This document shows positions 37,551 to 58,038 of a stretch of 64,000 nucleotides of DNA, piece after piece. Each line of letters starts with the position of its first letter. Position 1 is the first letter of the stretch. The notes under the pieces were generated by a model. It had not been told where the DNA came from. It did not search any database and saw nothing but the letters and a program-made list of their open reading frames with translations. Where the stretch lies: positions 28,369,234 through 28,433,233 of the forward strand of contig CM038471.1 in the NCBI GenBank assembly GCA_021464415.1, in the 5' to 3' direction. The DNA is from Lonicera japonica (Eukaryota > Streptophyta > Magnoliopsida > Dipsacales > Caprifoliaceae). Position numbers and translations under genes: made by a program.

Positions 37551-37682
37551 TTCGACTTTGTGGGTGTGACGGTGTGTGTTTTGTTGTTAGGGTTTAGACA
37601 ATTGAAACTGCACAAAAGGCGTGGGCCTTGCCGAAAATGCGTACGCTTTTCCTAAAACGCGTAAGCCTCGTTGAAAATGCGC
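36954..37682. mobile_element. hAT-type element, left part
   Basis: Begins CAGTGTTTTAAAAGGCG with GGCGTAAGCC motifs and ends in repeated GCGTAAGCCTCG-type sequence, like the complete relative at 58039-58895. The right end is replaced by LINE sequence. A CT microsatellite lies near 37510-37540. Confidence 0.6.
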
Positions 37683-39346: not shown

Positions 39347-39446
39347 NNNNNNNNNNNNNNNNNNNNNNNNNNNNNNNNNNNNNNNNNNNNNNNNNNNNNN
39401 NNNNNNNNNNNNNNNNNNNNNNNNNNNNNNNNNNNNNNNNNNNNNN
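39347..39446. other. Assembly gap (100 N)
   Basis: A run of exactly 100 N between the LINE and the first base of the Tat LTR. The true distance and the left target duplication of the LTR element are unknown. Confidence 1.
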
Positions 39447-40940
39447 TGTAGACACCCCGATCCGTGACCCCCGCAAGAACCCTAACGACCTACGAGACTA
39501 CTTTTTTTGGTCCAGGACACACCCGAGCACCCGAAACTACCCCGGGGGGGTTTGTTGCGCGACAAACCTATTTTTATGAAGGATTGTCGCACGACATATC
39601 ACATTGTCGCGCGACAATCATTGAATGTCGCGCGACAATCCCACTATGTCGCGCGACAATCCCTCTCTGCACCCGACCAACCACTTTCTGACACATCACA
39701 GTGTCAGGACCCATCACTTCAGCCGTTTGTCGCACGACATACAGGAATGTCGCGCGACAAACAGATATGTCGCGCGACACTTGCCTTTTTTGGGAAATGT
39801 CGCGCGACAATCTTCCCCGAGCAGTATAAATAGGCCAACACCCCCAAGGGTTCAAGGCAGCAATTGGAATCTGAAATTTGGAGCTTTAGATTTGATTTTT
39901 ATCAAGCACTTTTCTACTATTATCTTATTTCTGAAGAATTATCGAATCTATCCTCGACACTCGACGTGTCCCGTCTCCGGAATCGATTTCTCGAAAATAT
40001 CTGAAGAAAGAGAAGATTATTATCGCCAGAGATCCCTCTGCCGTATTATATTTTCTTTCTTATTATTATTCTCGTCGGGAAGGTAAAGAAAGTCCCTTCT
40101 AGTATTTAAAATTAGATATCTGTGTACTTGTTTTACTTCTGTTTTTCTGTCCACGTTTTATTTGAATAAACTATTGTCAAGTTACAAATAGTCTATCGTT
40201 TTCGACACAAAAAGACCCTGATAAAACCATTTTCAAAACCAGAAGAATAAGTACGTTATCGTCCGGATAAACCCTGTTTTCAAAACCCGGACTGATAAGA
40301 CTTATTTAGGAATTAAAAATCAACATATCCTGTCTTCTTCTATAGACTGCGATGTGTCTGATAATTCTCCTCAAAGAGTCATGATTCCATATTAAATTAG
40401 TCCCGATATTATCCGAACTTTCCAAAAGTAAACACAACACGAGAAAACCGTCATTATCTGAGGAAATAATACGGGATACTCTTTCAAAATAAAAGGTTTT
40501 TGTCATGTGTATTTACATCTTTTAAATAATAAAAACATCGGATCTCGGAACACAAAGGTTTCATCCCTTTCCGTTTTCCCCCAGAAATTAGGGTTTTCAT
40601 TTGAAAGTAGTAGACTGTCAGTAAAAGCATCCAAGTTTTTCAACATAGAATAAACATATAAGTCCACTAGAGACCGAAAGGGCGGAATGGGTGCTTAACA
40701 CCTTCCCAAACCGTAATATAGTTCCCGAACCCTATAGAAACCTGGTTTCGCAGACAAACGTGTAAAGAAAGGCTTGTCTATAGCCTTTCCCTTACACAAC
40801 CTTTTTGTCCGTTTTCTCGTAAAACGTACTGGCGACTCTGAACGAACCCCTTTGCATCTAGAATAGACGTAGGGACACCCGATATGAATCATCAAAACAA
40901 CTCCAAGCAAATGGACGACGGAATCCCTCCGACAGCTTCC
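39447..40940 (+). repeat. 5' LTR of Tat element (3' tip not recognisable)
   Basis: Matches the 3' LTR from its first base to GACAGCTTC at about 40940, then diverges. The 3' LTR continues about 50 bp more to a TCTCACA end. No tRNA primer-binding site is evident after the 5' copy. The TATA box is TATAAATA at 39825-39832. Confidence 0.85.
39552..39832 (+). promoter_or_regulatory. 5' LTR promoter: nine TGTCGCGCGACA-type palindromes and TATA box
   Basis: Cores lie at about 39553, 39585, 39605, 39626, 39647, 39728, 39748, 39768 and 39798. Most are exact TGTCGCGCGACA; the first, second and sixth have one changed base. The last ends 15 bp before TATAAATA (39825-39832). Each core has three CpG sites. 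Confidence 0.85.
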
Positions 40941-41668
40941 GAGTCTAGATAACTAGACTCTTATAATGTGGACTTTTGTTTATTTGAATACTTGCTTTTT
41001 TTCTGCTTTCCCTACTTATGTTAATTGATTGAGAAGAAACATTTTTTCAGAAAAAGGGAATTTTTCAAAAATACGTAATCAAGATAATGATATTTGTAAA
41101 CCCAACCTTTTCACACGCACTATCACAAATCATGCATTGGTTCTACAAGTGTGAATTTACCCAAACCCTCGAAAGTATTATAAGTGAGTAGGGAGTTGGC
41201 TTGCTTGGGCCAACATAAACCGAAAGCATTTACTTCCACTCTCCTTGGCCAAGTACGCCCCCGAGGTATATTGAGTGACGAGAACACTCACGTACCCGGG
41301 AAGTATATCAAAAGGCTCTTGCACGTACCCGCCCCTGGGGTATATCGCAAGGTCTTGCCAAAAAGAGGAGCCTGAAGCCTTAACCGTTCGTACACCTGCG
41401 CTGCATATAAGATCGAGTCAAGTTAAAACACTTGTCAAACAGCCGTAGGGGATGTACCACCTTACGGCTTACTTTTGGACGCCCTTTTTAAATCCGAGGC
41501 TCTTCTCGGCAATTTTTAGTGGTTCTTTTGGCAAAAATCGAGTCGCATCACAGTCTTCCTTCATCTTCGCCACGTGGTTTCGTCTACAGTCGTGAAGCAA
41601 CAAACAGACTGGAAGGTTGGGCCGGCCGTGATCACACCGGAAGACTAGTAAGACCAAGCACACCTGAA
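40941..41668 (+). other. Leader between 5' LTR and gag
   Basis: Non-coding. GAGTCTAGATAACTAGACTC at about 40940-40959 is a short palindrome right after the LTR match ends. No primer-binding site was recognised. Confidence 0.5.
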
Positions 41669-43640
41669 ATGGCCGATGAACGTGAGAATCGAGAGACAGA
41701 TCAGAGCCTAGCCGAGGCATCATCAGCTCAGCCAACCCTAGCCGAAATGCACCGTTTACTCATGACCGTCAGCAGGGATCTGGCAAACCTCACGAACGAG
41801 CAACAGGGTACCCGGATCCGAATAGAAGAATTATCAGCCGAACGAACTGCACCACCGGGGTTTGATCGACTACCACCGAATCGAGATCCGAACCAAGGAC
41901 AGTCTTCACAAGTACTCCCCCCAGTTCAAGGAACCAATCCACCCCAAACGGGCCCTATCGTAGTTGGTCCCGTTCAAACCGACCCCAACAATCAGAACCA
42001 ATGGGCCCCGGATTCAGGCCCCACTTACCAACAGCAGGAGCCACCCATAGTCTGGCCGCAACCCCAAGTACAACCCGTTTTGACCCCCAATACCAACCAT
42101 GGCCACAAGTTCCCGCAAAACCCATTCCACCACCGCCCCAGCAGCCCTCCCTAATGAATACCCAGACATCAACCGACTTCGGGCAGTATATGCAGAATCG
42201 GTAATAGCACGGGAACAGCCCGACGAGATGTCAAGAGAGAGTGAGAAATGAAGAAGCTGAAAGAGCAGATGAGGGTCCTACAGAAGGGGGTGTCCCTAAT
42301 AAAAGGTGCAGACGAGATCACGATATGAATGCCTTTCTCCCTCTACCCAGAAGCGCGATTGCACGCCAGGAATTCAAACTCCCTTCCATCACCAAGTTCA
42401 CTGATACCACGCCCCCTAAAACTCACCTGTACAGTCCTTAGGATCCTCACGATCCCTGCAAGTGTCCGGTGGACGAGAGCCGGAATTAGCATCAAGCCTT
42501 TCACAGAACTCTTCCACGGAGAAGCCGCCCTGAGATGGTTCTTTGGGTCTAGAAAGCATCACAACGCAGACTTGGGAGATATCGTCAAAGAATTTATGAC
42601 CAAATACGGGTCCAACGAGGATTTGGAAATTACACGTAAACACCTGGAAAATGGCCAAACGGCGAGAAAGAAAGCCTTCAGCGACTTTGTCACCCGCTGG
42701 AGGGAGATGGCCTCCCAAATGTCCAAACGACCCGATGAAGACGAACAGCCTGGGAAATCATTCAGAAGAACTTCACTCCGCCGTACTGAGTTGCATGGGA
42801 AAGCACGTATTCCCACAATGCAATCAGAGCCCTGTTGAGTATGGGGGTCACAAGTAGAGGAAGAACTGGCCAAGAAAGTTGAAACTGATACCAAGAAAAG
42901 CCTCTTACGCCGGAAAGAAAGACGGCCACTCAGCCGTAAACCAACTAACTAGCTCGTACCCGTATCAACAAAACCATTCCACAGCAGTCACCTCCGCAAG
43001 TCCCCCAAATGAATGGCCTACGCAGGGAGACTCTTCAAACACCGAGGCCAAGAAAAGGAGAAATTTCTGCACCCTCCCCACTACTCTGGTTAAGAGCCTG
43101 GAACTACTCCAAAAAGCTGGACTAGTCGCTCCACTCAACCCACGCCCCCCACCAAACCCTATTCCCAACACTTGGAGAATGAATGAGAACTGTGCGTACC
43201 ATCAAGCGGCAGGCCATGACACGGAACGCTGTTTAGCTCTCCGCCATCGAATCCAGGACCTCATTGAAGCCGGAACTATCCCCGCACCCGGCGGGCCCAA
43301 TGTTACTAACAATCCACTTCCTAACCATGCTCCACCTGCAGGGATTAATGCCTTGACCACTGATGAAGAAGGCTTCGATCCCGTGGGGCTCATTCGAGAT
43401 GACCCAACCTACAGGGCACTCATTGTACTGCCAGCAAAGGCTCAAGTTACCCCAGGCCTCAATCCAATAATTGACCAATGGATGGCCAAAATGAACTTCC
43501 TACCCGGGCAGGGTTTAGGAAAAACAAATCAGGGGATCTCACAACCACTCACAATCAAAACCAATCCCGGAAAATCTGGGATAGGATGGACCCAGAATAA
43601 GAAGAAACAATCATGGAAATCCCAAAACCCCCCCAGGGAG
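41669..43640 (+). pseudogene. Tat gag (frame-broken)
   Basis: Starts MADERENRET. The capsid-like retrotransposon gag domain lies at about 42490-42730 (ALRWFFGSRKH, FSDFVTRWREMASQM), followed by CAYHQAAGHDTERC near 43186, a knuckle-like motif typical of Tat, and a first G-patch-like motif (PGQGLGKTNQGI) near 43500. The frame changes at about 42150-42330, 42830-42880 and 43640. Confidence 0.8.
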
Positions 43641-44491
43641 ACAATCTGTATGACAGAAACCTCCCCCGGGACTTTCAGTTGGTCGATAGAGCCAGAATCG
43701 TCAAAACTTCAGAGGAATCAAACCCGGCATCCCTTTGGATCCAACAAATCACCCGTTCAGGAAGGGTATACCAACCACCACCGGATGCTGAGAAAACACC
43801 GCCACCTAAGGAAATAGGAGAAGATAGAGTGCTTGAGCAGTTGAAGAAGACCCAGGCACACATCACCATTTGGGGCCTCTTGGTTGCCTCCAAACCCCAC
43901 AGGACCGCTTTCATCAAACTTCTGGACGAAGCCGTGATATCACCAGACTCCACACCCGAACAACTGCCAAACATGATCGGGTCACTTACAGTCCAAAGAA
44001 GTCTGTCATTTTCAGATGAAGACTTGTCTCCATTGGGGAGAAAACACAGCCTGGCTCTCCACATCACCGTCCGAACTCGAGGGAAGATCTTGCCACAAGT
44101 CCTCATCGACAATGGGTCGACCATAAATGTTTGCCCCCTGAAGACTGCCAGATGCTTGGGTATATTGGATTCAGAGCTTTCACCATCCGCCGTAACCGTC
44201 AGGGCCTATGATAATACCAGGAGGGCCGTTCTGGGTTCTCTGAAGCTTGATCTCATGGTCGGTCCCGGAATTTTTTCGGCCGATTTCCAAATCATAGACA
44301 TTCCCTCCAGTTTCAACCTCCTGCTGGGAAGAGCGTGGCTACACGACATAGGAGCACTCCCCTCCTCCTTGCACCAAAAGATCAAGATACCGTTTGAAGG
44401 GAACATAATTACCATCCAAGGAGATCCTGAAAGGACCTTGGCAGATGTGGAGTTACCTGTTTTGGGAATCGGAGCCAGAGCATACAGTTAG
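43641..44491 (+). pseudogene. Tat aspartic protease region
   Basis: Contains VLIDNGSTINVCPL at about 44099, the DNG(S/A) active-site form usual in Tat, and FNLLLGRAWLH downstream. It ends in TAG at 44489-44491, after which the coding sense resumes in another frame. Confidence 0.8.
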
Positions 44492-45558
44492 GAGGCTTTT
44501 CTTATGAGCCTCAAGTACAAACTCTCAGCACTCAGATAATCGAATATCTCCCCCCAGACAATATCCCCGGTCTCAGCACCAAGATTACAAATATGCTAAG
44601 AATGATGAAATATTTACCTGGAGCCGGCCTAGGAATGGGACAATCAGGACTACTTCAAGCCTTGGAACCGATAACGAGGTACGAAAGGGAAGGTTTGGGG
44701 TACCAACACACTGAAGAAGACGATCAGCAGAAAAAGGGCCGAGGGCATCAGTATCCGAGTTTCAGCTCTTTGAACGGGTTTTTTGTCAAAGAAGGAGAGG
44801 ACTTCCCCTTTTGCGGTTTTCAGGAACCTTGGAGAAACAGTGACGGAGAGAACCTGCCGGGATGGGAAATCTTCTATGAAGAGGACCTATATGTCAAAGA
44901 AAGCATTGAACATGGTTTCTCCACCAAATTAACGATCGGGCTGAAAGAAGGAAATGAAGACAAGACAGAAAGGAGGAAGAAATGATCGGAGATCTTTTCG
45001 ACATCATGGTTCTAGGAGATGACAAGCCAGGGATGACCCCGTACACCTGATATACGCTGATCCAGACTACCAAAGGGAAAGAGAAAAGAGTGAAATTGTA
45101 AGGGTGAGAGGTGAGAGTGAAAGTAAGGCTAGGAAAGAGCCACTCCTAGATTTACTCTTTAAACTTGTACCTGTAAACACTATTATCAATGAAGAAAACT
45201 CTGTGTTGCGTTATCCTGTTATTTGTAATTCTGTAATAGCTTATAAGGAGTTAGAAAGACTGAACGAACACCCGAAACGGGAGGAGCAGCGTATACAAAG
45301 CGAGGAAGGAGACACTCTTGTGATTAACCTCGGAACAGAGGAGGAAAGAAGAGAGGTCCGCATTGGGGCAAGCCTAAGTGAGACAGAAAGAGAAGAATTC
45401 ACACAAACTCTGAAAGAGTATGTGGATGTCTTCGCCTGGTCTTATGCGGATATGCCAGGTTTGAACAGCCAGATAGTCATGCACGAGATACACACCAAGC
45501 CAGAATTTGGCCCGTCAAGCAGAAGCTGAGGAAACTTACGCCAGAATGGTCCTTAAAA
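44492..45558 (+). pseudogene. Tat pol linker with second G-patch-like motif
   Basis: KYLPGAGLGMGQSGLLQ at about 44610 and GLGYQ near 44695 form a G-patch-like element. Further on, EVRIGASLSETER and DVFAWSYADMPGL are the conserved residues before RT in Tat. Two frames are used (44593-44985 and 45104-45529). Confidence 0.75.
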
Positions 45559-47203
45559 GTGAAAGAAGAGGTGATGAAACAATTAAGTGTGGGTTTCTTG
45601 CGGGTAATCGAATACCCTTCGTGGTTGGCCAACATCGTGCCTGTTCCAAAAGCTAATGGGAAAGTCCGCATGTGTGTGGATTACCGGGATCTCAATAAAG
45701 CTTGTCCAAAAGACGATTTTCCCTTGCCCAACATCGATTTGATAGTAGATAATACTGCCAACCACGCCCTGAAGTCATTTGTGGATGGTTTTGCCGGATA
45801 TAACCAGATCAAGATGCACCCAGATCACCAAGAGAAAACAGCATTCATCACACCGTGGGGAACATACTGCTACACCGTTATGCCATTTGGGCTAAAGAAC
45901 GCCGGGGCAACGTATCAGAGGGCAGCTACGGCTATCTTTCACGACATGATTCACAAAGAAGTAGAGGTGTATGTAGACGACATGATAATCAAGTCAAAAG
46001 AGAGGAAAGGCCACGTACCAGCCTTGCGAACCTTCTTTGATCGGCTCCGCCAATATCAGATGAGACTCAACCCGCAGAAATGTGTGTTCGGGGTAACCAA
46101 AGGAAAACTCCTGGGATATGTCGTCAGTAAGAAGGGAATCGAGGTGGACCCCGCTAAAGTTCAAGCTATCCAAGACATGCCTAAACCTCGTACCGAGAAA
46201 GAAGTCCGAGGATTTTTGGGTAATCTGCAGTACATCAGTAGGTTCATCTCTCAGCTCACTCAGACTTGCGAGCCCATCTTCAAACTCCTGAGGAAATCTT
46301 CACCAGGAGAGTGGGACGGCCAGTGCCAAGAAGCTTTTGATAGAATCAAAGAATACCTCTCCAAACCCCCAGTGTTAGCCCCGCCCCAGACCGGACTGCC
46401 ACTAATCTTATACCTAACCGTCACTGATTCGGCTGCGGGAGCAATGCTAGCCCAGCACCTGACCGATACCCGGAAGGAGCAGGCCATCTATTTCCTCAGC
46501 AAAAAGCTGTCCCCATTTGAGATAAACTACACACCATTGGAGAAATCGTGTACCGCTCTCGTCTGGGTAACACAGAAACTACGGCACTATATGCTAGTTT
46601 TCCCAGTCATCCTGGCATCACGGATCGATCCGTTGAAATACCTCTTCGAGAAACCGGCTCTCTCGAATCGAATGGCAAAATGGTTGTTTCTACTCTCCGA
46701 ATTCGACATCACCTACATGACCCAAAAGGCAGTCAAAGGCAAGATCATAGCTGATTACCTGGCCCACAATCCGATATTAGGAGACATGCTAGAAGAAGCC
46801 GAGTTCCCGGACGAAACCATCATGAACGTCGAGATCGATGAAGACTGGAAGTTGTACTTTGACGGGGCCGCCAATCGAAACGGAAACGGGATAGGCATCC
46901 TGTTAGTTCTCTCCAGACCAAACTCACTCCCCGGTATCATATCGTCTGGACTTTTTCTGCACCAACAACATGGCCGAATATGAAGCATGCATACTCGGGT
47001 TAGAGATCGCTCTTCAAAAGGGTATAAAGAGAATACAGGTATATGGAGATTCAGCACTAGTGGTCCACTAAGTTCTGAAGGAATGGAAGATCAGAGATGA
47101 GAAATTAGTCCCTTACCTCGCCCGACTAGAGGATGTCGCAGGAAAGTTCGAGCGTGTAGAGTTTTACTATATCCCCAGGTCCCAGAATAGTTTTGCTGAC
47201 GCA
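45559..47203 (+). pseudogene. Tat reverse transcriptase, RNase H and archaeal-type RNase H
   Basis: The RT and first RNase H are open for 474 codons (45559-46983): VRMCVDYRDLNKACPKD, PFGLKNAGATYQR, YVDDMIIKS, then RNase H with a TVTDSAAGAML core. The additional RNase H begins WKLYFDGAANRNG at about 46850 and continues in another frame with NNMAEYEACILGLEIAL. A TAA at 47069-47071 interrupts it where a Gln codon is expected. Confidence 0.85.
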
Positions 47204-48583
47204 TTGGCAACCCTGGCATCTATGATCGATATTCCGGAGGGGATGGAAGAAATAACCCTCACGGTACAAAAGAAATCAGGACTCGCGCACTGCATGACCC
47301 TTGAGGTAGAAACTGAAAAAAACGGTGACTCGACCGTTTGGTTTTATGACATCTGGAACCTTCTGAAGAACCACCAGTATCCCGAGGAAACAGACAAGAG
47401 AACGCGGGTCACCCTCAGAAGACTAGCATCAGGATTCATACTCTGTGCCGGAAGATTATATAAAAGGAACTACGACGGGACTCATCTTCAATGTCTCACC
47501 GAAGAAGAATCGGTTAGAATGATGGATCAGATACATGGGGGCGATTGCGGACCTCATATGAGCGGGCATACACTTGCCCGCAAGATCATCAGGCAAGGGT
47601 ATTTCTGGTCTACCCTACAAACCGACTGTGCTGACCATGTACGCCGTTGTCACAAATGCCAAATCTATGCTAAATCCCAGAAGCTTCCTCCAAAAGAGTT
47701 GTACAACATGACTGCTCCCTGGCCTTTCGCAACTTGGGGAATCGACGTCATAGGGAAAATCTCGCCCAAAGCCAGCAACGGCCATGAATTCATACTAGTA
47801 GCCATCGACTACTTCACCAAATGGGTGGAAGCCGAGTCTTACCAGACCCTGGATGCCAGGAAAGTTGCCCGATTCATCAAAAGGAACATTGTCTGCCGAT
47901 ATGGGGTCCCACACGAGATCATCTCAGATAACGGCACCCACTTCGAAGGAGAAGCTAATACAGTCATGGAGGAATACGGTATCACCCGACACAAATCTTC
48001 GCCATATAGGCCACAAACCAATGGGGCAGTTGAAGCCGCCAACAAGAATTTGAAGAATATCCTAAGCAAGATGACCGACACCTGCCGGGACTGGCCGGAG
48101 AAATTACCATATGCATTGTGGGGATACCGCACCACCGAGAGGGTCTCCACCGGGGCAACCCCATTCTCGCTGACATACGGGATGGAGGCAGTCCTCCCTG
48201 TCGAGTTAGAAGTCCCCTCCCTCAGGGTAATACTAGAAAATCAAGTCAATGAACTGGAATGGGTCCAGGCACGTTATAACGAGCTAGCCCTACTAGATGA
48301 AAAGAGATTGAAAGCCGCATACCACCATCAGGGGTATTAGAAGAGAATCGCTCGAGCATTTAACCAGAAAGTGAGGACTCGGGGTATCAACGAGAACGAT
48401 ATTGTATTGAAAGAAATTCGAGAACCGGCCAGAGATCCGAGGGGTAAGTTTGGGCAGAAGTGGACAGGGCCATACATCGTCAAAGAAATCGATACAGGAG
48501 GTGCCGCTATACTCACTGATTTGGATGGGCAGTTACTACATTCACCAGTCAACATGGATCGACTGAAGAAGTATTATCAATAG
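47204..48583 (+). pseudogene. Tat integrase
   Basis: Zinc-binding H-H-C-C part (CHKCQIYAK), then the catalytic core with WGIDVIGK, DNGTHFEG and VEAANKNLK (the DD35E residues appear present). The C-terminal part after a TAG at 48338-48340 reads KFGQKWTGPYIVKEI and ends at 48583. The TAG stands where a Gln codon would fit. Confidence 0.85.
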
Positions 48584-48806
48584 GTGTGGCATGTAATAAG
48601 AACTACGTAAACCTGAGCCCCAACTCAAAACTTTTTGTTCTTTGTAAAAATCAAAAAGGGGAACGTAGGCAACCTGAGAAGTGACTTCAGGCCCGGTTTA
48701 AACTTTATAAATAAATTTATTTTCCGCAAGCAGTCCCTCATATATTATTAAAAGGTGGTTCAGAACACCGAAGGTTACAAAGGAGACATAACAAATACGA
48801 AAGAAA
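48584..48806. other. Convergent spacer between pol and antisense ORF1
   Basis: About 220 bp that must contain the 3' ends of both the sense pol reading frame and the antisense ORF1 transcript. No further structure is seen. Confidence 0.5.
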
Positions 48807-50063
48807 CTAATCCCTAGGAGTTGGCCACACTGGGTCCTCAATAGCCAAGTCGATCCGAGCTTCGTCCAAGATCTGATATGCAAAGACAATGTTATCATCA
48901 GTAGCCTCCGTATCCATGAACCGGAACCATTCCATTTGAAAGGGGTCGTCGATCAGTTCTCCTTCCAGAGATTGCCAGCAAGAGCGGATGATATCAGCCC
49001 GGAGGGGCCGGGTAATACCAAAACGGGCATAGTTGAACCGACGAGTCAGTCGAGCACGCCACATCCTCTCTACCGATAAAGAAACATGTGGGGTCACAAA
49101 TTTAGACTCAGAAGAGAAGTTGTTTAGACCAAGGGGAACCTCCTGAGGAATGTTAAACTGTCGAAAAAGACGCCCAGGGAGATAAAAGGAAGTGAACCAG
49201 AGCCCGCGGAGCCGAACATAGTTCTGACCCCCAGTGCTAAGTACCATCGCCCTCAGCTTCCACCAAGGAATGTTCCACCGGATAGCCCGAAAGTTCTCCG
49301 AAAACCATACCGTCCAATCAGAGGAAGACATGGTCAAAGCACCAAAGAGAGGCCGATGGAAGAAATGAGTCGGATTGTCGAGCCGAGCTCCGTTGAAACC
49401 CACCGATCGAAAGCGCTCTAGCAGCCACATGTATAGCAGACGCGGACTCCCCCGGAAGAAGGGCGAGGCCCCCCGTTGAACATCATCAAGACCATTCAGG
49501 GTCTCTGCAAGAATGATCGGCACTATAGACTCCCCATTTCTAGCCTGGTAAATCAGACTCAGGATAGTCGGATCAACACGGGAAGAACCCGTCACCAGCA
49601 GCATATCAGAAACCAGGCAAATCAGGGCCGCTGCAGTACGCCCCACGCCGTAAGAGGCCCTATCTTCATAACGATGAAAGAACCTCACCATTTTATGAAG
49701 GTCAAGAAAACCATCGGCAATAAAACCATCACAGGCCGCCGGGGGAATGGCTAACAGAGCAATTAGCATGTCACGGGGACCGATTTCTTCTATGGGAACT
49801 GCCATCGGGAGACGAACGTCAGAACGTAACAGCCAGGAGAACTCCTCATAGGTCGGGCAGAGCTCATCTAGTCCAAAACGGAAGAGATGGTCCGCAGGAC
49901 TCCAGAAATACAAGGCACCTAACAGAAAGGAAAAATCGACCGGACGATGGCACCAACCCGCTAAAGGACTGAAGGCACCAAAGTTCAGACCATTTTCAGA
50001 AGATATCAAAGCATCTCTAGCATTGACATAAGAAAAATCAGATTTTGTGCGATAAGAAGACAT
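48807..50063 (-). CDS. Antisense ORF1 of Tat element (418 aa, intact)
   Basis: An uninterrupted ORF opposite to gag-pol. It starts MSSYRTKSDFSY 39 bp downstream of a TATA box (TATAAATA, complement of 50102-50109). Residues such as ALYFWSPADHLFRFGLDELC and PTYEEFSWLLRS resemble the retroelement-associated DUF7745/plant-mobile-domain-like proteins, in which a hydrophobic FWDP..FRFG block is followed by a PTxEEY motif. I cannot name a biochemical function. It has no signal peptide or membrane segment. Two GTCGCGCGAC palindromes lie upstream of its TATA box, as in the LTR. That it has no stop in 1.25 kb while gag-pol is broken at many points is notable. The family call is tentative. Confidence 0.75.
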   Translation of the reverse strand: MSSYRTKSDFSYVNARDALISSENGLNFGAFSPLAGWCHRPVDFSFLLGALYFWSPADHLFRFGLDELCPTYEEFSWLLRSDVRLPMAVPIEEIGPRDMLIALLAIPPAACDGFIADGFLDLHKMVRFFHRYEDRASYGVGRTAAALICLVSDMLLVTGSSRVDPTILSLIYQARNGESIVPIILAETLNGLDDVQRGASPFFRGSPRLLYMWLLERFRSVGFNGARLDNPTHFFHRPLFGALTMSSSDWTVWFSENFRAIRWNIPWWKLRAMVLSTGGQNYVRLRGLWFTSFYLPGRLFRQFNIPQEVPLGLNNFSSESKFVTPHVSLSVERMWRARLTRRFNYARFGITRPLRADIIRSCWQSLEGELIDDPFQMEWFRFMDTEATDDNIVFAYQILDEARIDLAIEDPVWPTPRD

Positions 50064-50101
50064 TTTTGGAAAGTGTGGGGATGAAGGAAGGAAGATGGGT
50101 G

Positions 50102-50179
50102 TATTTATAGCAAAAAAGAGGGACCTGTACCTGTTTGTCGCGCGACAAACTCATATCCAGGAGGGATTGTCGCGCGACA
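50102..50179 (-). promoter_or_regulatory. Promoter of antisense ORF1: two palindromes and TATA
   Basis: GTTTGTCGCGCGACAAAC (50133-50150, perfect 18-bp palindrome) and a second core TGTCGCGCGACA (50168-50179) precede TATAAATA (complement of 50102-50109). The nearer core is 26 bp from the TATA box. Confidence 0.8.
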
Positions 50180-50505
50180 AACCCCTTTGGGGTCACCCTA
50201 ATTTGGTTTTTTCTTACACATAACAGTCATTTTTGCCAAAAGAATCATTTTTTAGATGCTTTCTTGTTCTCACTTTGCTCTTGGTTTACAGGAAAAATAT
50301 CACTATACTACAAGGTATGGCTTCTAAAATCACTGACTCTTATATATGTATCTTTCACACACAGAGAATAAAAGTATAATCAAACGCAGATAAAGATATT
50401 TTATAAATCCTATAAAAAAAAACAGTTTTTAAATATCTGTCTAAACATGTCTAAAAATAAATACATATCTGTCCAAAACTAACACTAAATGCAGAAAAGG
50501 GAAAG
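50180..50505. other. Spacer between the two antisense genes
   Basis: AT-rich. It should hold the 3' UTR of the antisense PMD gene and the upstream promoter of antisense ORF1. No ORF. Confidence 0.5.
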
Positions 50506-53500
50506 CTAATCTACTCGGGCGCGTTTTGACACGCTCCCACTATCACCCGAGCCTTCCTCGGGAGTAAGATCAACGACTGGGACGCTGGGAGCGGGAGGAG
50601 CTGCCGCTTGGGAAGGACCCGTAGACTGAACCGGTGCCGTCGGACGGATCACCGAAGATCGGGATCGCCTAGAAGTCCGACTGCTACTCCGCCTAGACTC
50701 CGACCGAACATGAGAGGAGGTCAGGGGGTCGTCCGGCCGTAAGGAGACGTCGATAGCCCTCTGATAATCACGCATGTAGGCCGGAGGGTCTCGACCGACG
50801 TACTAGAGCAGGTTCCAGCGGTAAAGATACTGGGCGTGCCAAGCCCGAAGGTCTGCCACCCGTACACTCACCCGCTGTAAAAAAGACAGAAGATAAAAGA
50901 ATCAGCACAGTCAAAATAGATAGATATGGATGTAAAGGTATCAAGAGAAGTTGAAAAAAGTACCTCGTCATCAGGGCGACCACCCAGATAATCAAAAGTA
51001 TCCTCAGGAAGGGGATACTCGGGGACGGGATATCGACGTAATCCAGCGCCAACGTAAGAGATGTCCCTGGGGAGTGGGGGTAGATCTACCCACGGAATAG
51101 ACGTCCCCGCCGGAACACCAGCAGAAGTGGACCCGCCCTCCTCGCGGATCGGGAACAAGGGAGGCCGGGATGAAGAACCCCCGAAACCTGGAGATCGGGC
51201 AGGAGGACCCATGACAGTCGCCGGAAGAGGAGTCAACGTGGCGTAGGTACGAACCCCCGGAGGATCCACTATGGCCGTCGCCCTCAAAGGAGGTACCCCA
51301 CTAGAAGGAGTAGCCACCGCAGCTGGAGGAGTCCGCCCGAACTGCTCATAGTCTGCCCCAAGGTCCGCAGGCTCCCAGGACCTCTCAGACAATCCCGCTC
51401 TCCCCTCAGCAGCCTCAGCAGCAGCAAAAAGAACCCCCGGAGACACAGAAGGGCCGGTGGGAAACTCGAAACCCTCAGCACGCTGCTCCCTCACAGGTGT
51501 CGCCTGAGGTGACGGCTCCGGAACAGCTGTCGCATCACCTCCCTCACCCTCTGGCTGACCACCGCCCTCGGCCGCAGCAGGAACATCCCTCTCTCCCTCA
51601 GGATCCTCATCCTCAGAATCCGGAATGTTGTCCCTCTGATCGGGGACAGGTGGCAAGTGACCCGGAACCGCCCTAGCTAAATGGGTCTGTCCCCGTATGT
51701 AGTTGGGATCACCTCCCAGTGCCCGGTACCTCTCATAGAAGACCCGTCCCCGAGTCCCCTTCGGCTCCCTCATCAGATAACGGGCAGCAAAAAACGGGGT
51801 AGTCTCCCTCCTCGACGAACGTCTGGAAGCCGAGTCCGTCGACCAAGGCCTGCACCGTCACCGGATCGATCTCGCCCGTCCGCCTCATCAGAACAGGAGG
51901 GAATAATGGAACACGAGGCCACTGGGACGGCGTGTGCTGGCGAATGACCCTCTCGCCCAAGTAGAAGAGAAGGCCATACTCATCCCGGATAAGCCGCCTA
52001 GTCCTCGAGGCGGTCAGGGCGCGGCCATATCCATAATGGGGACTCAGATCACCCCAAGGAGCCCACTCAACCTGAAAAGAAAACAAGTTTTTTATTTCCA
52101 ATAATTTATATATTCTATCTATGAAAGAGCAAGAGAACTAAAATATTTACCTGCTCCTCCAACAGGTCGTGAACGGCAGCAGCTCCGGTCTCCCGAGTCC
52201 GGTATACATAGGGAGCCCGGTAGTTCCCCGCAATGAATCGGCAGAGAAAAGGAAATTGGTCCTCGTTCTCAACGAGGAGATCCACCTGGGCACGACCCAG
52301 GCGGGTATAAGCAACAAACCAGCTCTGAAAAGGAAAGATAAAAGAAATCAGCAATGATCAACAGGTAATATGCAAAGAACTGAAGCAAGGACAAAAGGAC
52401 TAAAGTATGTACCTCCCACAGCAGAGAAAAGCCCTTGAGGTTCAGGGCTAAATGGCGAGAGACCTGGTCCATGGCATCATAGAGGACTGCAAGAATGAAG
52501 CCTCCCCAGTCATAGTCAAACATGAGGTTGAAGTCCCGAAGATAGGGCAACCACCAAAGGTGAGCCGTGTCCCCGCCACGTGCCTCGAACAAATCATGGA
52601 GTGTCAACAGAAGAAGGACGCGGGCATACTGGCGCGCCTCCTGACGGGTCATAGGAACCCCTGAAGCAACTAACCGAGCTCTCTCTACGGCTAGCCGCGT
52701 AACCAAGACACCCCGAGGAATCGTATCGCCGGAACTCCGCCGCTCTGGGAACCATCCAAGCGCACTAACGATACCCTCTGCTGTCAGACGCAAAGGGACA
52801 TCGATCTGAATAGGGACCCCCCTGAAGGAATCCCGGTCAGAGCAAAAAGATCGAGGGGTGTCATCGTCATCTCACCCCAGCTCCAATGGAAGGTATGAGT
52901 AGTATCCCACCAATGGCAAGCCAGGGCCGACACCAAAACTGCCGCCCTAGAAACCCGCTCCGGGAGGGCGTCGAAGAGGGAGCCAAAAGGAGTCGCAAGA
53001 ATCAACTCCTGGACAGGGGCCGGTGCCCGTCGCCACTCCGAAGATATAGTGTTGGGAGAACCCCAACCCCGGCCAACCCACTGCAGACAAGAGAAAGAGA
53101 TATTGGGTTATAAGGGTAAAATTATGTATTTTTTTCAAAACCTGAGGGTACTTTGGTATAATTATGAGAGTTATAGGGCTATAGGGGTAAATTATGTAAT
53201 TTTCCAAACCCGAGGGTACTTTGGTGTAAATATAAGAGTTATAGGGCTATAGGGGTAAATTATGTAATTTTCCAAACCTGAGGGTACTTTGGTGTAAATA
53301 TGAGAGTTATAGGGCTATAAGGGTAAATTATGTATTTTTCCAAAAACGTGAGGGTACTTTGGTGTAATTATGAGAGTTATAGGGCTATAGGGGTAAATTA
53401 TGTAATTTTCCAAACCCGAGGGTACTTTGGTGTAAATATAAGAGTTATAGGGCTATAGGGGTAAATTATGTAATTTTCCAAACCCGAGGGTACTTTGGTA

Positions 53501-54629
53501 TAATTATGAGAGTTATAGGGCTATAGGGGTAAATTATGTAATTTTCCAAACCTGAGGGTACTTTGGTGTAAATATGAGAGTTATAGGGCTATAAGGGTAA
53601 ATTATGTATTTTTCCAAAACGTGAGGGTACTTTGGTGTAATTATGAGAGTTATAGGGCTATAGGGGTAAATTATGTAATTTTCCAAACCCGAGGGTACTT
53701 TGGTGTAAATATAAGAGTTATAGGGCTATAGGGGTAAATTATGTAATTTTCCAAACCTGAGGGTACTTTGGTATAATTATGAGAGTTATAGGGCTATAGG
53801 GGTAAATTATGTAAATTTTCCAAAACCTGAGGGTACTTTGGTGTAAATATGAGAGTTATAGGGCTATAAGGGTAAATTATGTATTTTTCCAAAAACGTGA
53901 GGGTACTTTGGTGTAATTATGAGAGTTATAGGGCTATAGGGGTAAATTATGTAATTTTCCAAACCCGAGGGTACTTTGGTGTAAATATAAGAGTTATAGG
54001 GCTATAGGGGTAAATTATGTAAATTTTCCAAAACCTGAGGGTACTTTGGTGTAATTATGATAGTTATAGGGCTATAGGGGTAAATTATGTAATTTTCCAA
54101 ACCTGAGGGTACTTTGGTGTAATTATGAGAGTTATAGGGCTATAGGGGTAAATTATGTAATTTTCCAAAACCTGAGGGTACTTTGGTGTAATTATGAGAG
54201 ATATAGGGTTATAAGGGGTAAATTATGTATTTTTCCTAAAAACTAAGAGGGATCACAGGTAAAAGTATGTGTTCGCTAAAATCGGGCGTTATTCCTAGGC
54301 AGACATGCATACTAACATTATCTAAAAACGAATACAGGAAACGACAAGAAGCAGAACAGATAAATGCACGAACGAAGACATACCAGAGATCGACGACGAA
54401 TCTCGTGAGAGACAGGCTCCATCAAAAGCCACGGGACATCCGGGACCGGAGCAGCTCGGATAGCATCCCGATAGACCACCGCTCGACCGCGGTCTATCCC
54501 ATCCTCATCATACCAATCCAAATCCGCCCAGTCGTCATGATGAGGGCTGCAGCGGAGAACGCCCTGAGCGTCAGTGAAAGTGACCTCCTCCTGGTCGCCC
54601 TCCAGTCTGTCGGGATGAGCAGGGTCCAT
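50506..54629 (-). CDS. Antisense plant-mobile-domain (PMD) gene, five exons, lightly broken
   Basis: I read exons 54384-54629, 52413-53080, 52151-52324, 50964-52071 and 50506-50874 on the minus strand, all GT-AG and phase 0, about 854 codons in total. The start is MDPAHPDRLEGD. Exon 2 has the PMD signature TFHWSWGEMTMTPLD followed by LTGIP, preceded by a Trp/Gly-rich entry (WVGRGWGSPNT). Exon 4 encodes a Pro/Glu/Gly-rich disordered region, and exon 5 ends Ser/Arg-rich with KRARVD, a possible nuclear signal. Three breaks: a C run of 6 at 52817-52822 (one short), an A run of 6 at 51789-51794 (one long), and a TAG at 50803-50805 (minus strand) where a Gln codon fits. The two homopolymer shifts could be assembly errors. 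PMD proteins MAIN/MAIL1 act in plant gene expression and TE silencing; this protein's role is unknown. Confidence 0.8.
53100..54235 (-). repeat. Minisatellite, about 68-bp unit x 16-17, within PMD-gene intron 1
   Basis: Units carry GAGAGTTATAGGGCTATA, GGGGTAAATTATGTAA and TTTTCCAAACC, then GAGGGTACTTTGGTGTAA. Subtypes alternate (TATAAGGG versus TATAGGGG; AATTATGAG versus AAATATAAG), indicating higher-order duplication of 3-5 units. It fills most of the intron 53081-54383. Confidence 0.95.
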
Positions 54630-54778
54630 CAGGTATAGGTAGGATATATGAAGAAGGTCGGAAAAGTCAAAAACACGGCAGAGCTTCCGCGCTTGGGAGA
54701 GAAGAAAATAAGAGAGAAGGAGAGCTAGAGAGAGAAAGAGAAGGGAGAGAATGAGGTGGAATGAGCTTAGCAGGAGGC

Positions 54779-54862
54779 TTATATAGTGGGGCAGTTTGTC
54801 GCGCGACAAATGGCCACATTGTCGCGCGACAAAGAACCATCCCACCGAAGTGTCGCGCGACA
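54779..54862 (-). promoter_or_regulatory. Promoter of antisense PMD gene: three palindromes and TATA
   Basis: Cores TGTCGCGCGACA at 54797-54808, 54820-54831 and 54851-54862. The nearest is 11 bp from a TATATAA box (complement of 54779-54785). The ATG is 150 bp further, after a CT-rich 5' UTR. Confidence 0.8.
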
Positions 54863-55725
54863 ATCTCCTGTCCCCCCTGATTTTTTGACCTCTTTTCTCA
54901 TTTTTATCTCCTACAGGAGGACTTCCGAGGAGCAGTTTTCGAAAAAAATGCTAAAACCACACACCCATAAAGATTTCAAAGAGAAAATTTCCAAATCATC
55001 TCTCCGAAAAAAAGCGAGAACAGAATGCCACGATTAAAAGTAGTCTCTGATCTCACAGAAGGACCGAGACCATCAAATAAGAAAAGGCAGAATGGCAAGA
55101 TAAGACGGGGATAGAAAAAAATTGAAAAAGTAGAAAAGAGAAATAACCCGTATGAACGCCCAAAGCGAGCGAGAGAAACAGAAATGCAGAGTGACAGGGA
55201 GAGCCACACCAAAAGTGACAGCTAGGCCAAATCGGCTCAGGGCTTCGTTTTGGGTGAGTAAGGCTCCTGATCACGACAAAGGGATGAAAAGACTCCTGGT
55301 CAAAAACAGAGAGGGCCAGGAAAAGTCTTTCCCAAAAGAGGGAGAAATAAGGGCATCGAAAAACAGAAAACGATGTTGGGCCCACCAAAAAGAGAAATTG
55401 AGAAAAGAACAGAGATCAGAGATTGGACTTTCAGACAAATTTTCTTTTCAGCACGATACAGAAGAGATGGTTTGGAAAATCCTCGAATCATCACGCTGCG
55501 GAAAGCAAAAGAAAATCGAAAACTGCCTTCTGAGAAAAGTATCCTCACTCAAGGAAAACATGAGAACAAAATTCAAGAAAGATATAGGAAAGCGGACATT
55601 CGGATAAGATTAGACCTCGAGGAGCTCTTTTTCACCCTCACAAAAACTTCTCTCTCTCACTCTAGCAATCTAAAGAGAGACAAATTAAATTTCTACAAAA
55701 ATCACAAACACAAGCCCTCTTCAGA
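54863..55725. other. Purine-rich region before the 3' repeats of the Tat element
   Basis: Plus-strand ORFs of up to 151 codons occur (55152-55607, 55373-55768), but they are Lys/Glu/Arg-rich, overlap in two frames and show no domain. I treat the region as non-coding. Confidence 0.4.
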
Positions 55726-56200
55726 GGCAAAATCACAAGCCCTCTCCAGAGGCAAAAGTTACTCATGAAAGTCCTCCCAGAGGCATTTTTTCCTTCTTCT
55801 TACAGATCTAGAAGCCCTCCCAGAGAGGCACAACGGTAGTCCTCCCACCTGAGGCGAAGCCCTCCCAGAGAGGCACAAACGGTAGTCCTCCCACCTGAGG
55901 CGAAGCCCTCCCAGAGAGGCACAAACGGTAGTCCTCCCACCTGAGGCGAAGCCCTCCCAGAGAGGCACAACGGTAGTCCTCCCACCTGAGGCGAAGCCCT
56001 CCCAGAGAGGCACAAACGGTAGTCCTCCCACCTGAGGCAAAGCCCTCCCAGAGAGGCACAACGGTAGTCCTCCCACCTGAGGCGCAATGGTAGTCCTCCC
56101 ATCTGAGGCAAGTGGAGCAAGTCAAAGCCCTCGAGAGAGGCAATGAGGTAACAAAAGCCCTCTCCGGAGGCAAAACCAAACACAAAGCCCTCTCCGGAGG
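55726..56200 (+). repeat. GAGGC/GCCCTC hairpin repeat block next to the 3' LTR
   Basis: At 55808-56100 a unit of about 46 bp (AGCCCTCCCAGAGAGGCACA, then ACGGTAGTCCTCCCACCTGAGGC) is repeated six times; further AGCCCTC(T)CCGGAGGCA-type units flank it on both sides. Each half-unit is a short inverted repeat (GCCCTC..GAGGC), so the RNA could form a string of small hairpins. Confidence 0.9.
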
Positions 56201-56317
56201 CACTCATAAGCACTTTTTGCATAAACACTTCTTTAGAGTTCATGCGGGAGCCATGGATCATGGTCTCTTCCAGTCGCCTCAATTCCTTGCAAGCAAGGAG
56301 CTTGAGTCGAGAGGGTC

Positions 56318-57885
56318 TGTAGACACCCCGATCCGTGACCCCCGCAAGAACCCTAACGACCTACGAGACTACTTTTTTTTGGGTCCAGGACACACCCAAG
56401 CACCCGAAACTATCCCGGGGGGGTTTGTTGCGCGACAAACCTATTTTTATGAAGGATTGTCGCACGACATATCACATTGTCGCGCGACAATCATTGGAAT
56501 GTCGCGCGACAATCCCACTATGTCGCGCGACAATCCCTCTCTGCACCCGACCAACCACTTTCTGACACATCACAGTGTCAGGACCCATCACTTCAGCCGT
56601 TTGTCGCACGACATATAGGAATGTCGCGCGACAAACAGATATGTCGCGCGACACTTGCCTTTTTTAGGGAAATGTCGCGCGGCAATCTTCCCCGAGCAGT
56701 ATAAATAGGCAAACACCCCCAAGGGTTCAAAGGCAGCGATGGGAATCTGAGAATTTGGAGCTTTAGATTTGATTTTTATCAAGCACTTTTCTGCTATTAT
56801 CTTATTTCTGAAGAATTATCGAATCTATCCTCGACACTCGACGTGTCCCGTCTCCGGAATCGATTTCTCGAAAATATCTGAAGAAAGAGAAGATTATTAT
56901 CGCCAGAGATCCCTCTGCCGTATTATATTTTCTTTCTTATTATTATTCTCGTCGGGAAGGTAAAGAAAGTCCCTTCTAGTATTTAAAATTAGATATCTGT
57001 GTACTTGTTTTACTTCTGTTTTTCTGTCCACGTTTTATTTGAATAAACTTATTGTCAAGTTACAAATAGTCTATCATTTTCGACACAAAAGACCCTGATA
57101 AAACCATTTTCAAAACCAGAAGAATAAGTACGTTATCGTCCGGATAAACCTTGTTTTCAAACCCCGGACCGATAAAAGACTTATCTAGGAATTAAAATCC
57201 ACATATCCTGTCTTTTTCATAGACTGCGATGTGTCTGATAAACTCTCCTCAAAGAGTTCTGATTCCATATTAAATTAGTCCCGATATTAGATCCGAACTT
57301 TTCCAAAAATAATCACAAACTCGAGAAAACCGTCATTATCTGAGGAAATAATACGAAATACTCTTTCAAAATAAAAGGTTTTTTTTGTCATTTTTCATTT
57401 ACATCTTTTAATTTATAAAAACATCGGATCTCGGAATACAAAGGTTTTCACCCCTTTTTCAGTTTTTCCCGAGAAATAGGGTTTTCTTTTAGAAAGTAGT
57501 AGACTATTGGTAAAAACATCCAAGTTTTTCAACATAGAATAAATATATAAGTCCACTAGAGACCGAAAGGGCGGAATGGGTGCTTAACACCTCCCCAAAC
57601 CGTAATATAGTTCCCGAACCCTATAGAAACCTGGTTTCGCAGACAAACGTGTAAAGAAAGGCTTGTCTATAGCCTTTCCCCTTACACAACCTTTTTGTCC
57701 GTTTTCTCGTAAAACGTACTGGCGACTCTGAACGAACCCCTTTGCATCTAGAATAGACGTAGGGACACCCGATATGAATTATCAAAACAAACTCCAAGCA
57801 AATGGAGCGACGGAATCCCTTCCGACGCTTCAGACCACCACGAACGGGGACGAGACCCGGGGGGTCGCATTTGCGGATTCTCACA
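56318..57885 (+). repeat. 3' LTR of Tat element
   Basis: Begins TGTAGACACCCCGATCC after GAGAGGGTC. The TATA box is TATAAATA at 56700-56707. It matches the 5' LTR to about 57831, then continues to TTCTCACA, which would give the canonical CA end at 57885. Confidence 0.85.
56424..56707 (+). promoter_or_regulatory. 3' LTR palindrome array and TATA box
   Basis: Nine TGTCGCGCGACA-type cores, at the same relative places as in the 5' LTR. The last (56673-56684) reads TGTCGCGCGGCA, one base off, 15 bp before TATAAATA. Confidence 0.85.
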
Positions 57886-58038
57886 GCGATGAAGTGAATT
57901 TTATTTATTTTTTTTTTTTTTTTTGAACATCAAAATATATGCGGAGGTCAACCAATTCTGTATCGAAATAGATATTCTTTATGGGACAGAAGATAATACA
58001 ATGAACCATAGGATTCTCATAATATATGTAATATCAAT

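What the first reader, a model, noticed from the sequence alone, without database searches (positions are those of the whole stretch)
39552..56707. One palindromic cis-element marks the LTR promoter and both antisense gene promoters of a Tat retrotransposon
The core TGTCGCGCGACA occurs 9 times in each LTR, 2 times upstream of antisense ORF1 and 3 times upstream of the antisense PMD gene. In all cases it sits immediately upstream of a TATA box (11-26 bp to the nearest core) and has the correct orientation relationship to the gene start. I saw no other copy in the 64-kb window. A 12-bp CpG-dense palindrome clustered only at these four promoters is far beyond chance. It implies one dimeric factor, host or element-encoded, controlling genomic RNA and antisense genes together. 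The closest known logic is VANDAL MULEs, whose VANC proteins bind short motif clusters in their own element and undo silencing. An analogous self-regulating or anti-silencing circuit in an LTR element, possibly run by the encoded PMD protein, is inference and to my knowledge not described.
Basis: partly seen in the sequence, partly recalled or inferred. Interest (0 to 1): 0.93.

Follow-up and report, generated by a model that had tools for sequence, protein, structure and literature searches.

The report
Shared palindromic switch in a retrotransposon
A plant jumping gene, probably of a honeysuckle, carries the same 12-letter palindrome in clusters just before its main promoter and before the predicted promoters of two genes read in the opposite direction, and in the copies examined the palindrome is better preserved than the DNA between its repeats, so one regulator likely controls all three promoters together.

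Summary
TGTCGCGCGACA occurs 16 times exactly and 23 times with up to one mismatch in the window, all in one Ty3/gypsy (Tat-type) LTR element: 9 sites per LTR (6 and 5 exact), 2 before antisense ORF1, 3 before the antisense PMD gene, 11-26 bp from a TATA box.
The host genome holds 29,561 exact sites; the reversed-pattern control has 1. The 50 sites listed first all lie in this family: 38 in LTRs, 9 in PMD promoters, 3 in ORF1 promoters. The 30 best-scoring LTRs, 29 ORF1 and 17 PMD promoters examined all carry sites at near-constant positions. Motifs vary less than spacers.
So this is a conserved promoter element, most simply the site of one dimeric factor. Which factor is unknown; anti-silencing is untested. 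Both antisense proteins look PMD-related, ORF1 only weakly. A partial precedent exists: Sirevirus (Ty1/copia) LTRs carry palindromic repeats that recur upstream of their ENV gene (PMC2829016). New here: a Ty3/gypsy element, antisense TATA promoters, two PMD-type genes. New variant of a known kind.

The parts
39447..40829 (+). 5' LTR
   Evidence: Two-copy alignment, 97.2% identity over 1378 ungapped columns; starts directly after a 100-N gap
56318..57719 (+). 3' LTR copy; homology runs on past a PBS-like TGGCGACTC to about 57834, so not a clean 3' end
39553..39809 (.). motif cluster of 5' LTR: starts 39553, 39585, 39605, 39626, 39647, 39728, 39748, 39768, 39798 (6 exact, 3 with one mismatch)
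39825..39832 (+). LTR TATA box TATAAATA, 15 bp after last core
   Evidence: sequence
50136..50179 (.). two exact motifs (starts 50136, 50168; 32 bp apart) of the antisense ORF1 promoter
50102..50109 (-). TATA box TATAAATA of antisense ORF1 (predicted), 26 bp from nearest core
   Evidence: sequence
48807..50063 (-). antisense ORF1, intact 418 aa, weak PMD/DUF7745 match; 94% identical to Lonicera macranthoides LguiA_007186
54797..54862 (.). three exact motifs (starts 54797, 54820, 54851) of the antisense PMD promoter
54779..54785 (-). TATA box TATATAA of the PMD gene (predicted), 11 bp from nearest core
   Evidence: sequence
54384..54629 (-). first exon of the antisense PMD gene (predicted)
   Evidence: 17 copies compared
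50509..53095 (-). remaining exons of the antisense PMD gene (predicted); reading frame broken in this copy
   Evidence: PMD match E 3.4e-9 for 52787-53107 and 7.3e-5, below cut-off, for 52269-52871; C-terminal part 92% identical to Lonicera LguiA_017809
53096..54236 (.). 68-bp tandem array in the predicted first intron of the PMD gene
41492..48590 (+). gag-pol region in several broken frames: G-patch, RT, RNase H, second RNase H (RVT_3), integrase
56426..56684 (.). motif cluster of 3' LTR: starts 56426, 56458, 56478, 56500, 56521, 56602, 56622, 56642, 56673 (5 exact, 4 with one mismatch)
56700..56707 (+). TATA box of the 3' LTR copy
   Evidence: sequence

Best explanation
TGTCGCGCGACA is a conserved promoter-proximal element that is predicted to be the binding site of one dimeric DNA-binding factor, which would switch on the LTR promoter and the two predicted antisense gene promoters of this Tat-type retrotransposon together. 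Shown: clusters of the site upstream of a TATA box at all three places, in copies on many contigs of the genome, at near-constant spacing, better preserved than the spacers. Inferred: that a protein binds the site, as a dimer because the site is a perfect palindrome; that it activates rather than represses, because the sites sit just upstream of the TATA boxes as in known LTR enhancers (recalled); and that sites about two or three helical turns apart are bound side by side. Not known: which protein. I lean slightly to a host factor, with an element-encoded PMD-family protein as the main alternative. Each site holds three CpG steps, so binding could be sensitive to DNA methylation; this too is inference.
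For:: counts, TATA proximity, 11 spacings with helical phasing (R 0.76 at 10.5 bp, reached by 0.0007 of jittered sets; spacings from tandem copying are not independent); 29,561 exact genomic sites, control 1; the 50 sites listed first all fall in this family (38 LTR, 9 PMD promoter, 3 ORF1 promoter), assigned with the motif masked; 30 of 30 LTR loci (the best of 40 scored from 3406 first-look candidates) have 7-10 sites with at most one mismatch, nearest core 15 bp before TATAAATA in 30 of 30; 39 LTR pieces, older ones included but chosen for an intact start and TATA, have 4-10 sites with up to two mismatches, gap 15 bp in 38 and 16 in 1; 29 of 29 ORF1 promoters have two or three sites 32 bp apart (up to two mismatches; at least one exact in each); 17 of 17 PMD promoters have sites (16 with three, one with two), TATA 11 bp from the nearest in 17 of 17; mismatches to the window, ORF1 motif 4/336, spacer 25/644, TATA 0/112; PMD motif 6/564, spacer 80/634, TATA 0/112; variable columns 9/60 motif against 32/87 spacer, Fisher P 0.0028; 39 LTR pieces, mean minority letter 0.025 in motif, 0.055 in spacer; of 642 exact 14-base ORF1 starts 419 have the exact motif 60-90 bp upstream, but only 130 keep a neighbouring spacer 12-mer.
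Against: No binding, expression or methylation data were available. Copies are related, so the P values overstate independence; for ORF1 alone motif against spacer columns is not significant (P 0.12). 223 of the 642 ORF1 starts lack the exact motif at that place. Part of the sharing may be by descent: the LTR's outer pair and the ORF1 pair have the same 32-bp spacing and 13 of 20 matching spacer bases. Within this element's own LTR pair, motif and spacer diverge alike (1/108 against 3/270). CpG steps in motifs have not decayed less than other U3 CpGs (40/877 against 22/424, P 0.58). TATA boxes are not invariant: the listings show changed ones. The site cluster folds as RNA far better than shuffles (z -12.8), which fits a small-RNA role. 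No host regulon was seen that would support a host factor.
Confidence: 0.72

Rival explanations
1. The palindromes act as RNA or DNA hairpins that feed small-RNA production or host recognition, as proposed for Sirevirus LTR palindromes in maize, and their place beside promoters is where the host silences the element.
For: The 3' LTR cluster folds to -132.6 kcal/mol against a shuffled mean of -70.9. Sirevirus palindromes are described as small-RNA hotspots (PMC5311732 passages; PMC10760457 passages). CpG density of the clusters.
Against: Any cluster of one palindrome folds well, so the fold is not independent evidence. A hairpin needs pairing, not one fixed 12-mer, yet the same letters are kept at three promoters with near-constant TATA distance. 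The PMD and ORF1 promoters hold only two or three sites. Hosts recognising the site should select for its loss (inference).
Confidence: 0.14
2. A special case of the best explanation: the element encodes the factor itself. One of its two antisense PMD-type proteins binds the palindrome and activates or un-silences its own family, as VANC proteins do for VANDAL elements.
For: 50 of 50 listed sites in this family. Arrays differ by 20-21-bp units in the LTR and by a 32-bp unit in ORF1 promoters, as VANC targets change by tandem repeats (PMC5735166 passages). 91 of the 102 best-scoring ORF1 relatives have no stop inside the match. Arabidopsis PMD proteins MAIN and MAIL1 are needed for expression of genes that carry a promoter motif (PMC7156037, PMC9899485 passages).
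Against: No DNA binding by a PMD protein is shown; the cited papers leave direct recognition open. The Arabidopsis motif given for MORC1, CATGCAGTTT, is unlike this one. ORF1 matches PMD only weakly and did not match a PMD piece of the second gene. 0 of 50 sites outside, or 0 of 18 clusters, still allows roughly 6% of sites or 15% of clusters in host DNA.
Confidence: 0.3
3. The sites are passengers: an LTR fragment with the palindrome was copied into the internal promoters and amplified as tandem repeats, without function.
For: Same 32-bp spacing and 13/20 spacer match of the LTR outer pair and the ORF1 pair; 6 of 36,508 20-mers in the element match the ORF1 spacer that well, including itself and both LTR copies. 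Tandem-repeat structure of the LTR clusters.
Against: Motifs are better kept than the spacers between them at all three places (for ORF1 alone not significant), and 419 of 642 ORF1 starts keep the exact motif against 130 for one spacer 12-mer. CpG steps in motifs decay less than in R-U5 (40/877 against 66/735), though not less than in the rest of U3.
Confidence: 0.06
4. The sites serve a step other than transcription, such as nucleosome exclusion, integration targeting or recombination between LTRs.
For: CpG-dense clusters can exclude nucleosomes (general knowledge, recalled).
Against: The near-constant 15, 26 and 11 bp to three TATA boxes points to transcription. Integration and recombination would not need sites at two internal antisense promoters.
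Confidence: 0.05

Closest known systems
Sirevirus palindromic repeated motifs (RM; Ty1/copia; PMC2829016, sections 9 and 10 and passages read)
   Same: Multi-copy palindrome in the LTR, drawn upstream of the TATA box in four elements; further copies upstream of an additional internal gene (77 of 79 linker copies lie upstream of ENV); CpG-rich; the motif differs per family while its place is kept.
   Different: Sireviruses are Ty1/copia and their extra gene is an ENV-like gene; core signature CGG-CCG is absent here. Here the palindrome marks two antisense TATA promoters of PMD-type genes in a Ty3/gypsy element.
VANDAL MULEs and VANC anti-silencing proteins (PMC5735166, PMC10398659; passages read)
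   Same: One short motif repeated in noncoding regions of the element, next to several of its genes; arrays that grow and shrink as tandem repeats.
   Different: DNA transposons; motif binding and loss of methylation are shown there and untested here; the VANC21 motif YAGTATTAY is not palindromic.
Grande gene23 and Retand antisense genes (PMC7264820 passages, PMC11963269 parts 1-3 of 5 read)
   Same: [quoted passage not shown] Grande gene23 is transcribed from its own promoter; tandem repeats in the region.
   Different: Retand genes carry TRP28; here both genes are PMD-type. No promoter element shared with the LTR appears in the parts I read.
Ogre elements with a plant mobile domain gene (PMC6317226, one passage)
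   Same: 57% of Ogre elements were reported to carry the PMD (PF10536) in an extra ORF.
   Different: The passage gives no promoter information; Ogre membership of this element was not tested by a tree.
Tnt1 BII box and other repeated LTR enhancers (search listing; otherwise recalled)
   Same: Repeated short boxes in U3 upstream of TATA.
   Different: Recalled only; not known to me to recur at internal gene promoters.

Membership tests
Tat lineage of Ty3/gypsy | integrase downstream of RT and RNase H (gypsy order) | tested here: met
   RVT_1, RNase H, RVT_3, Integrase_H2C2 and rve in this order, 45382-48340
Tat lineage of Ty3/gypsy | second RNase H domain | tested here: met
   RVT_3 match E 8.7e-5 after the RT RNase H; dual RNase H as Tat feature from a PMC9289625 passage
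Tat lineage of Ty3/gypsy | RT placed in the Tat clade of a tree | not tested
   no reference RT set was at hand
Ogre | plant mobile domain gene (in 57% of Ogre elements) | tested here: met
   PF10536 above cut-off for 52787-53107 (36.8 bits against 34.9); not exclusive to Ogre
Ogre | primer-binding site complementary to tRNA-Arg | tested here: inconclusive
   PBS-like TGGCGACTC at 40830; its tRNA was not checked by any search
Retand | antisense ORF with TRP28 (PF04195) | tested here: not met
   no PF04195 in the four antisense pieces scanned; the copy's second antisense gene is broken and was scanned in pieces
Sirevirus with palindromic RM | Ty1/copia gene order | tested here: not met
   gypsy order
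Sirevirus with palindromic RM | multi-copy palindrome upstream of LTR TATA and upstream of an extra internal gene | tested here: met
Sirevirus with palindromic RM | CGG-CCG core signature | tested here: not met
   core is TGTCGCGCGACA (one of the 13 published motifs, Tnd-1, also lacks the signature)
VANDAL/VANC system | MULE DNA transposon | tested here: not met
   LTR retrotransposon
VANDAL/VANC system | element protein binds the motif and removes methylation | not testable with these tools
   needs binding and bisulfite data

The most novel reading that the evidence does not exclude
An LTR retrotransposon has built its own regulon: a PMD-type protein from one of its two antisense genes binds a 12-bp palindromic operator and drives, or frees from silencing, the genomic RNA promoter and both antisense genes at once, a VANC-like self-activation system that arose independently in a Ty3/gypsy element and has seeded the genome with up to 29,500 operators.
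Probability: 0.28. Interest if true: 0.92.

Novelty: new variant of a known kind. Interest (0 to 1): 0.78.

Why it matters
The function of antisense genes in plant LTR elements is described as unknown (PMC7264820, PMC11963269). A shared, conserved operator would tie them to the promoter of the genomic RNA and gives a direct assay for what they do. It would show that an LTR element can run a multi-promoter regulon, and would make self-activation in retrotransposons testable with one 12-bp probe and two proteins. Some 29,500 dispersed copies of one CpG-dense site also mean that any factor binding it would face a genome-wide sink.

Tried and rejected
Known plant sites, by recalled consensus only: CAMTA VCGCGB does not fit TCGCGCGA; E2F TTTSSCGC does not fit; ARF half-sites TGTC fit but at a spacing not recalled for ARF dimers. 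No conclusion drawn.

Rfam: 0 matches in 39300-58000. PDB by sequence: 0 for the ORF1 family. ORF1 against the PMD piece by profile: no match, so their kinship rests on weak Pfam matches only. IMG/VR: no motif pair, no relative of ORF1 or RT. Motif string in papers: 8 hits, by listing unrelated.

Rejected: that nine exact cores per LTR exist; that site orientation means anything; that motif sharing is only by large duplication, since masked flanks of the PMD promoter match neither other promoter better than shuffles (of six strand comparisons only LTR against ORF1 stood out).

Codon-level evidence from Lonicera gene models that read through the promoters (P0001, P0012, P0014; 0 of 16 motif codons changed against 13 of 25 spacer codons for P0001 and P0012, P 0.0003; P0001 alone P 0.098) was gathered before the genome could be searched and is now secondary; P0014 resembles P0012 and was left out of that count.

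Not obtained: sites outside the family beyond the 50 listed (STGTCGCGCGACAS did not complete); the denominator for PMD starts (the numerator is 374 matches, some promoters counted twice).
Full report
What is there. The window lies in an 886-Mb genome. The close named protein matches are all from Lonicera macranthoides, a honeysuckle, so the host is probably a honeysuckle; the genome itself is unnamed. The element has two LTR copies (39447-40829 and 56318-57719, 97.2% identity over 1378 ungapped columns), a decayed gag-pol with G-patch, RT, two RNase H domains and integrase, and two genes on the opposite strand between pol and the 3' LTR. Antisense ORF1 (50063-48807) is intact, 418 aa, 94% identical to LguiA_007186. 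It matches PMD and DUF7745 weakly and below the curated cut-off (E 0.0014 for PMD); the four relatives found match the same two families, only P0002 passing a cut-off (DUF7745), and a direct profile comparison with a PMD piece of the second gene gave nothing. The second gene is a PMD gene by its 52787-53107 piece (36.8 bits against a cut-off of 34.9) and is broken in this copy.

The observation. One search found 23 sites with at most two mismatches, against 0.46 expected, all within the element; none has more than one mismatch. Sixteen are exact. The nearest core is 15, 26 and 11 bp from the LTR, ORF1 and PMD TATA boxes. Spacings are 32, 20, 21, 21, 81, 20, 20, 30 in the LTR, 32 at ORF1, 23 and 31 at PMD; they are phased with the helix (R 0.76 at 10.5 bp; 0.0007 of sets jittered by up to 5 bp reach it), though tandem copying makes some of them dependent.

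The genome-wide test. The exact site occurs 29,561 times; the same letters read backwards occur once. The tool lists only the first places. I fetched stretches around all 50 listed sites and assigned them with the motif masked: 38 lie in LTRs of this family, 9 in its PMD promoters, 3 in its ORF1 promoters, none elsewhere. These 50 sites are 18 clusters in the first 4.5 Mb of contig C1, from copies whose coding parts are about 80-99% identical to the window's. Zero of 50 sites allows about 6% outside, zero of 18 clusters about 15%.

Conservation in other copies. For LTRs, one search scored 40 of 3406 first-look candidates and gave 30 loci, which are the most similar ones; 30 of 30 carry 7-10 sites, always with the last core at the same distance from TATAAATA, and the array differs by units of 20-21 bp. 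In 39 LTR pieces that include older copies, chosen for an intact first 11 bases and a TATAAATA, there are 4-10 sites with up to two mismatches, 15 bp from TATA in 38 and 16 bp in one. For ORF1, 15 of 15 promoters (window included), two and 12 of 12 carry the sites 32 bp apart, two of them with one site at two mismatches; seven of the 14 copies have three sites at 32 and 32 bp. For PMD, 17 of 17 have sites, 16 with three. Mismatches to the window are 4/336 in motif and 25/644 in spacer at ORF1, 6/564 and 80/634 at PMD, and 0/112 in either TATA box. By column, 9 of 60 motif and 32 of 87 spacer columns vary (P 0.0028); ORF1 alone is not significant (P 0.12). Over the 39 LTR pieces the mean minority letter is 0.025 in motif, 0.055 in spacer and 0.055 in R-U5; TATA cannot be judged there, because the pieces were chosen for it. 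CpG steps in motifs have decayed less than in R-U5 (40 of 877 against 66 of 735) but not less than elsewhere in U3 (22 of 424). Genome-wide, 642 places hold the exact 14-base ORF1 start; 419 have the exact motif 60-90 bp upstream, 223 do not, and 130 keep a neighbouring 12-mer of the spacer; that control is a single 12-mer and partly reflects subfamily differences. The listings also show some changed TATA boxes. With three mismatches allowed, a 32-base ORF1 start occurs 1205 times. For PMD, 374 matches place the exact motif 150-180 bp before a 14-base start, some promoters counted twice, controls 0; the denominator search did not complete.

Origin. The LTR's outer pair and the ORF1 pair share the 32-bp spacing and 13 of 20 spacer bases, and one of six masked flank comparisons, LTR against ORF1 in the window's own orientation, scores above all 200 shuffles. 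The ORF1 sites may thus descend from an LTR piece. The PMD promoter shows no such flank match.

Mechanism. Position, constancy and preferential preservation make this a promoter element. A perfect palindrome kept letter by letter is most simply the site of a homodimer. That it activates, that the same protein serves all three clusters, and that the protein is host- or element-made are inferences. The LTR cluster also folds strongly as RNA (z -12.8), which any cluster of one palindrome would do, and Sirevirus palindromes are reported as small-RNA hotspots, so a silencing role remains a real rival.

What is known. I read sections 9 and 10 and passages of PMC2829016: Sirevirus LTRs carry multi-copy palindromes, drawn upstream of the TATA box in four elements, and in nine elements with an ENV gene 77 of 79 linker copies lie upstream of that gene; the authors suggest regulation and note that experimental confirmation is needed. 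This is the closest precedent and lowers the novelty. VANC proteins bind short motifs in noncoding parts of their elements, arranged as tandem repeats that grow and shrink (PMC5735166, PMC10398659, passages). An antisense gene with its own promoter is known from Grande (PMC7264820, passages), and antisense ORFs are general in recent Retand elements (PMC11963269, parts 1-3 of 5). Arabidopsis MAIN and MAIL1, PMD proteins, are needed for expression of genes that carry a 'DOWN' promoter motif, but direct recognition is open (PMC7156037, PMC9899485, passages). I found no description of an LTR element whose LTR and antisense gene promoters share one motif in the searches; the library holds open-licence papers only, I read few of the hits, and the 2016 Sirevirus palindrome paper was seen only as a citation.

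Noticed in passing
57719-57834: Homology between the two LTR copies continues past a PBS-like TGGCGACTC for about 115 bp, so the right LTR is followed by internal sequence: a recombined or tandem arrangement rather than a clean 3' end.
   Followed up: partly
39347-39446: A 100-N assembly gap ends exactly before the first base of the 5' LTR, so the left flank and target-site duplication cannot be checked.
   Followed up: no
L074-L079, L081: Copies from ORF1 subfamilies with other open-frame lengths (431, 449 and, for L081, 432 aa) carry three sites at exact 32-bp spacing in the ORF1 promoter, one unit more than the window copy.
   Followed up: partly
53096-54236: A 68-bp tandem array of about 17 units fills most of the predicted first intron of the antisense PMD gene.
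   Followed up: no
55811-56084: A 45-46-bp tandem array of about 6 units stands before the 3' LTR.
   Followed up: no
P0006, P0009, P0010, P0013, P0015: Lonicera gene models join exon 1 or other parts of the element's PMD gene to other protein sequence, for example a model with ankyrin-type Pfam domains (P0013); capture by host genes or annotation error.
   Followed up: no
37598-39346: A non-LTR (LINE-like) reverse transcriptase ORF with zf-RVT lies directly left of the gap.
   Followed up: no
L072, L073: Two near-identical copies of an ORF1 subfamily lie 22 kb apart on C5.
   Followed up: no
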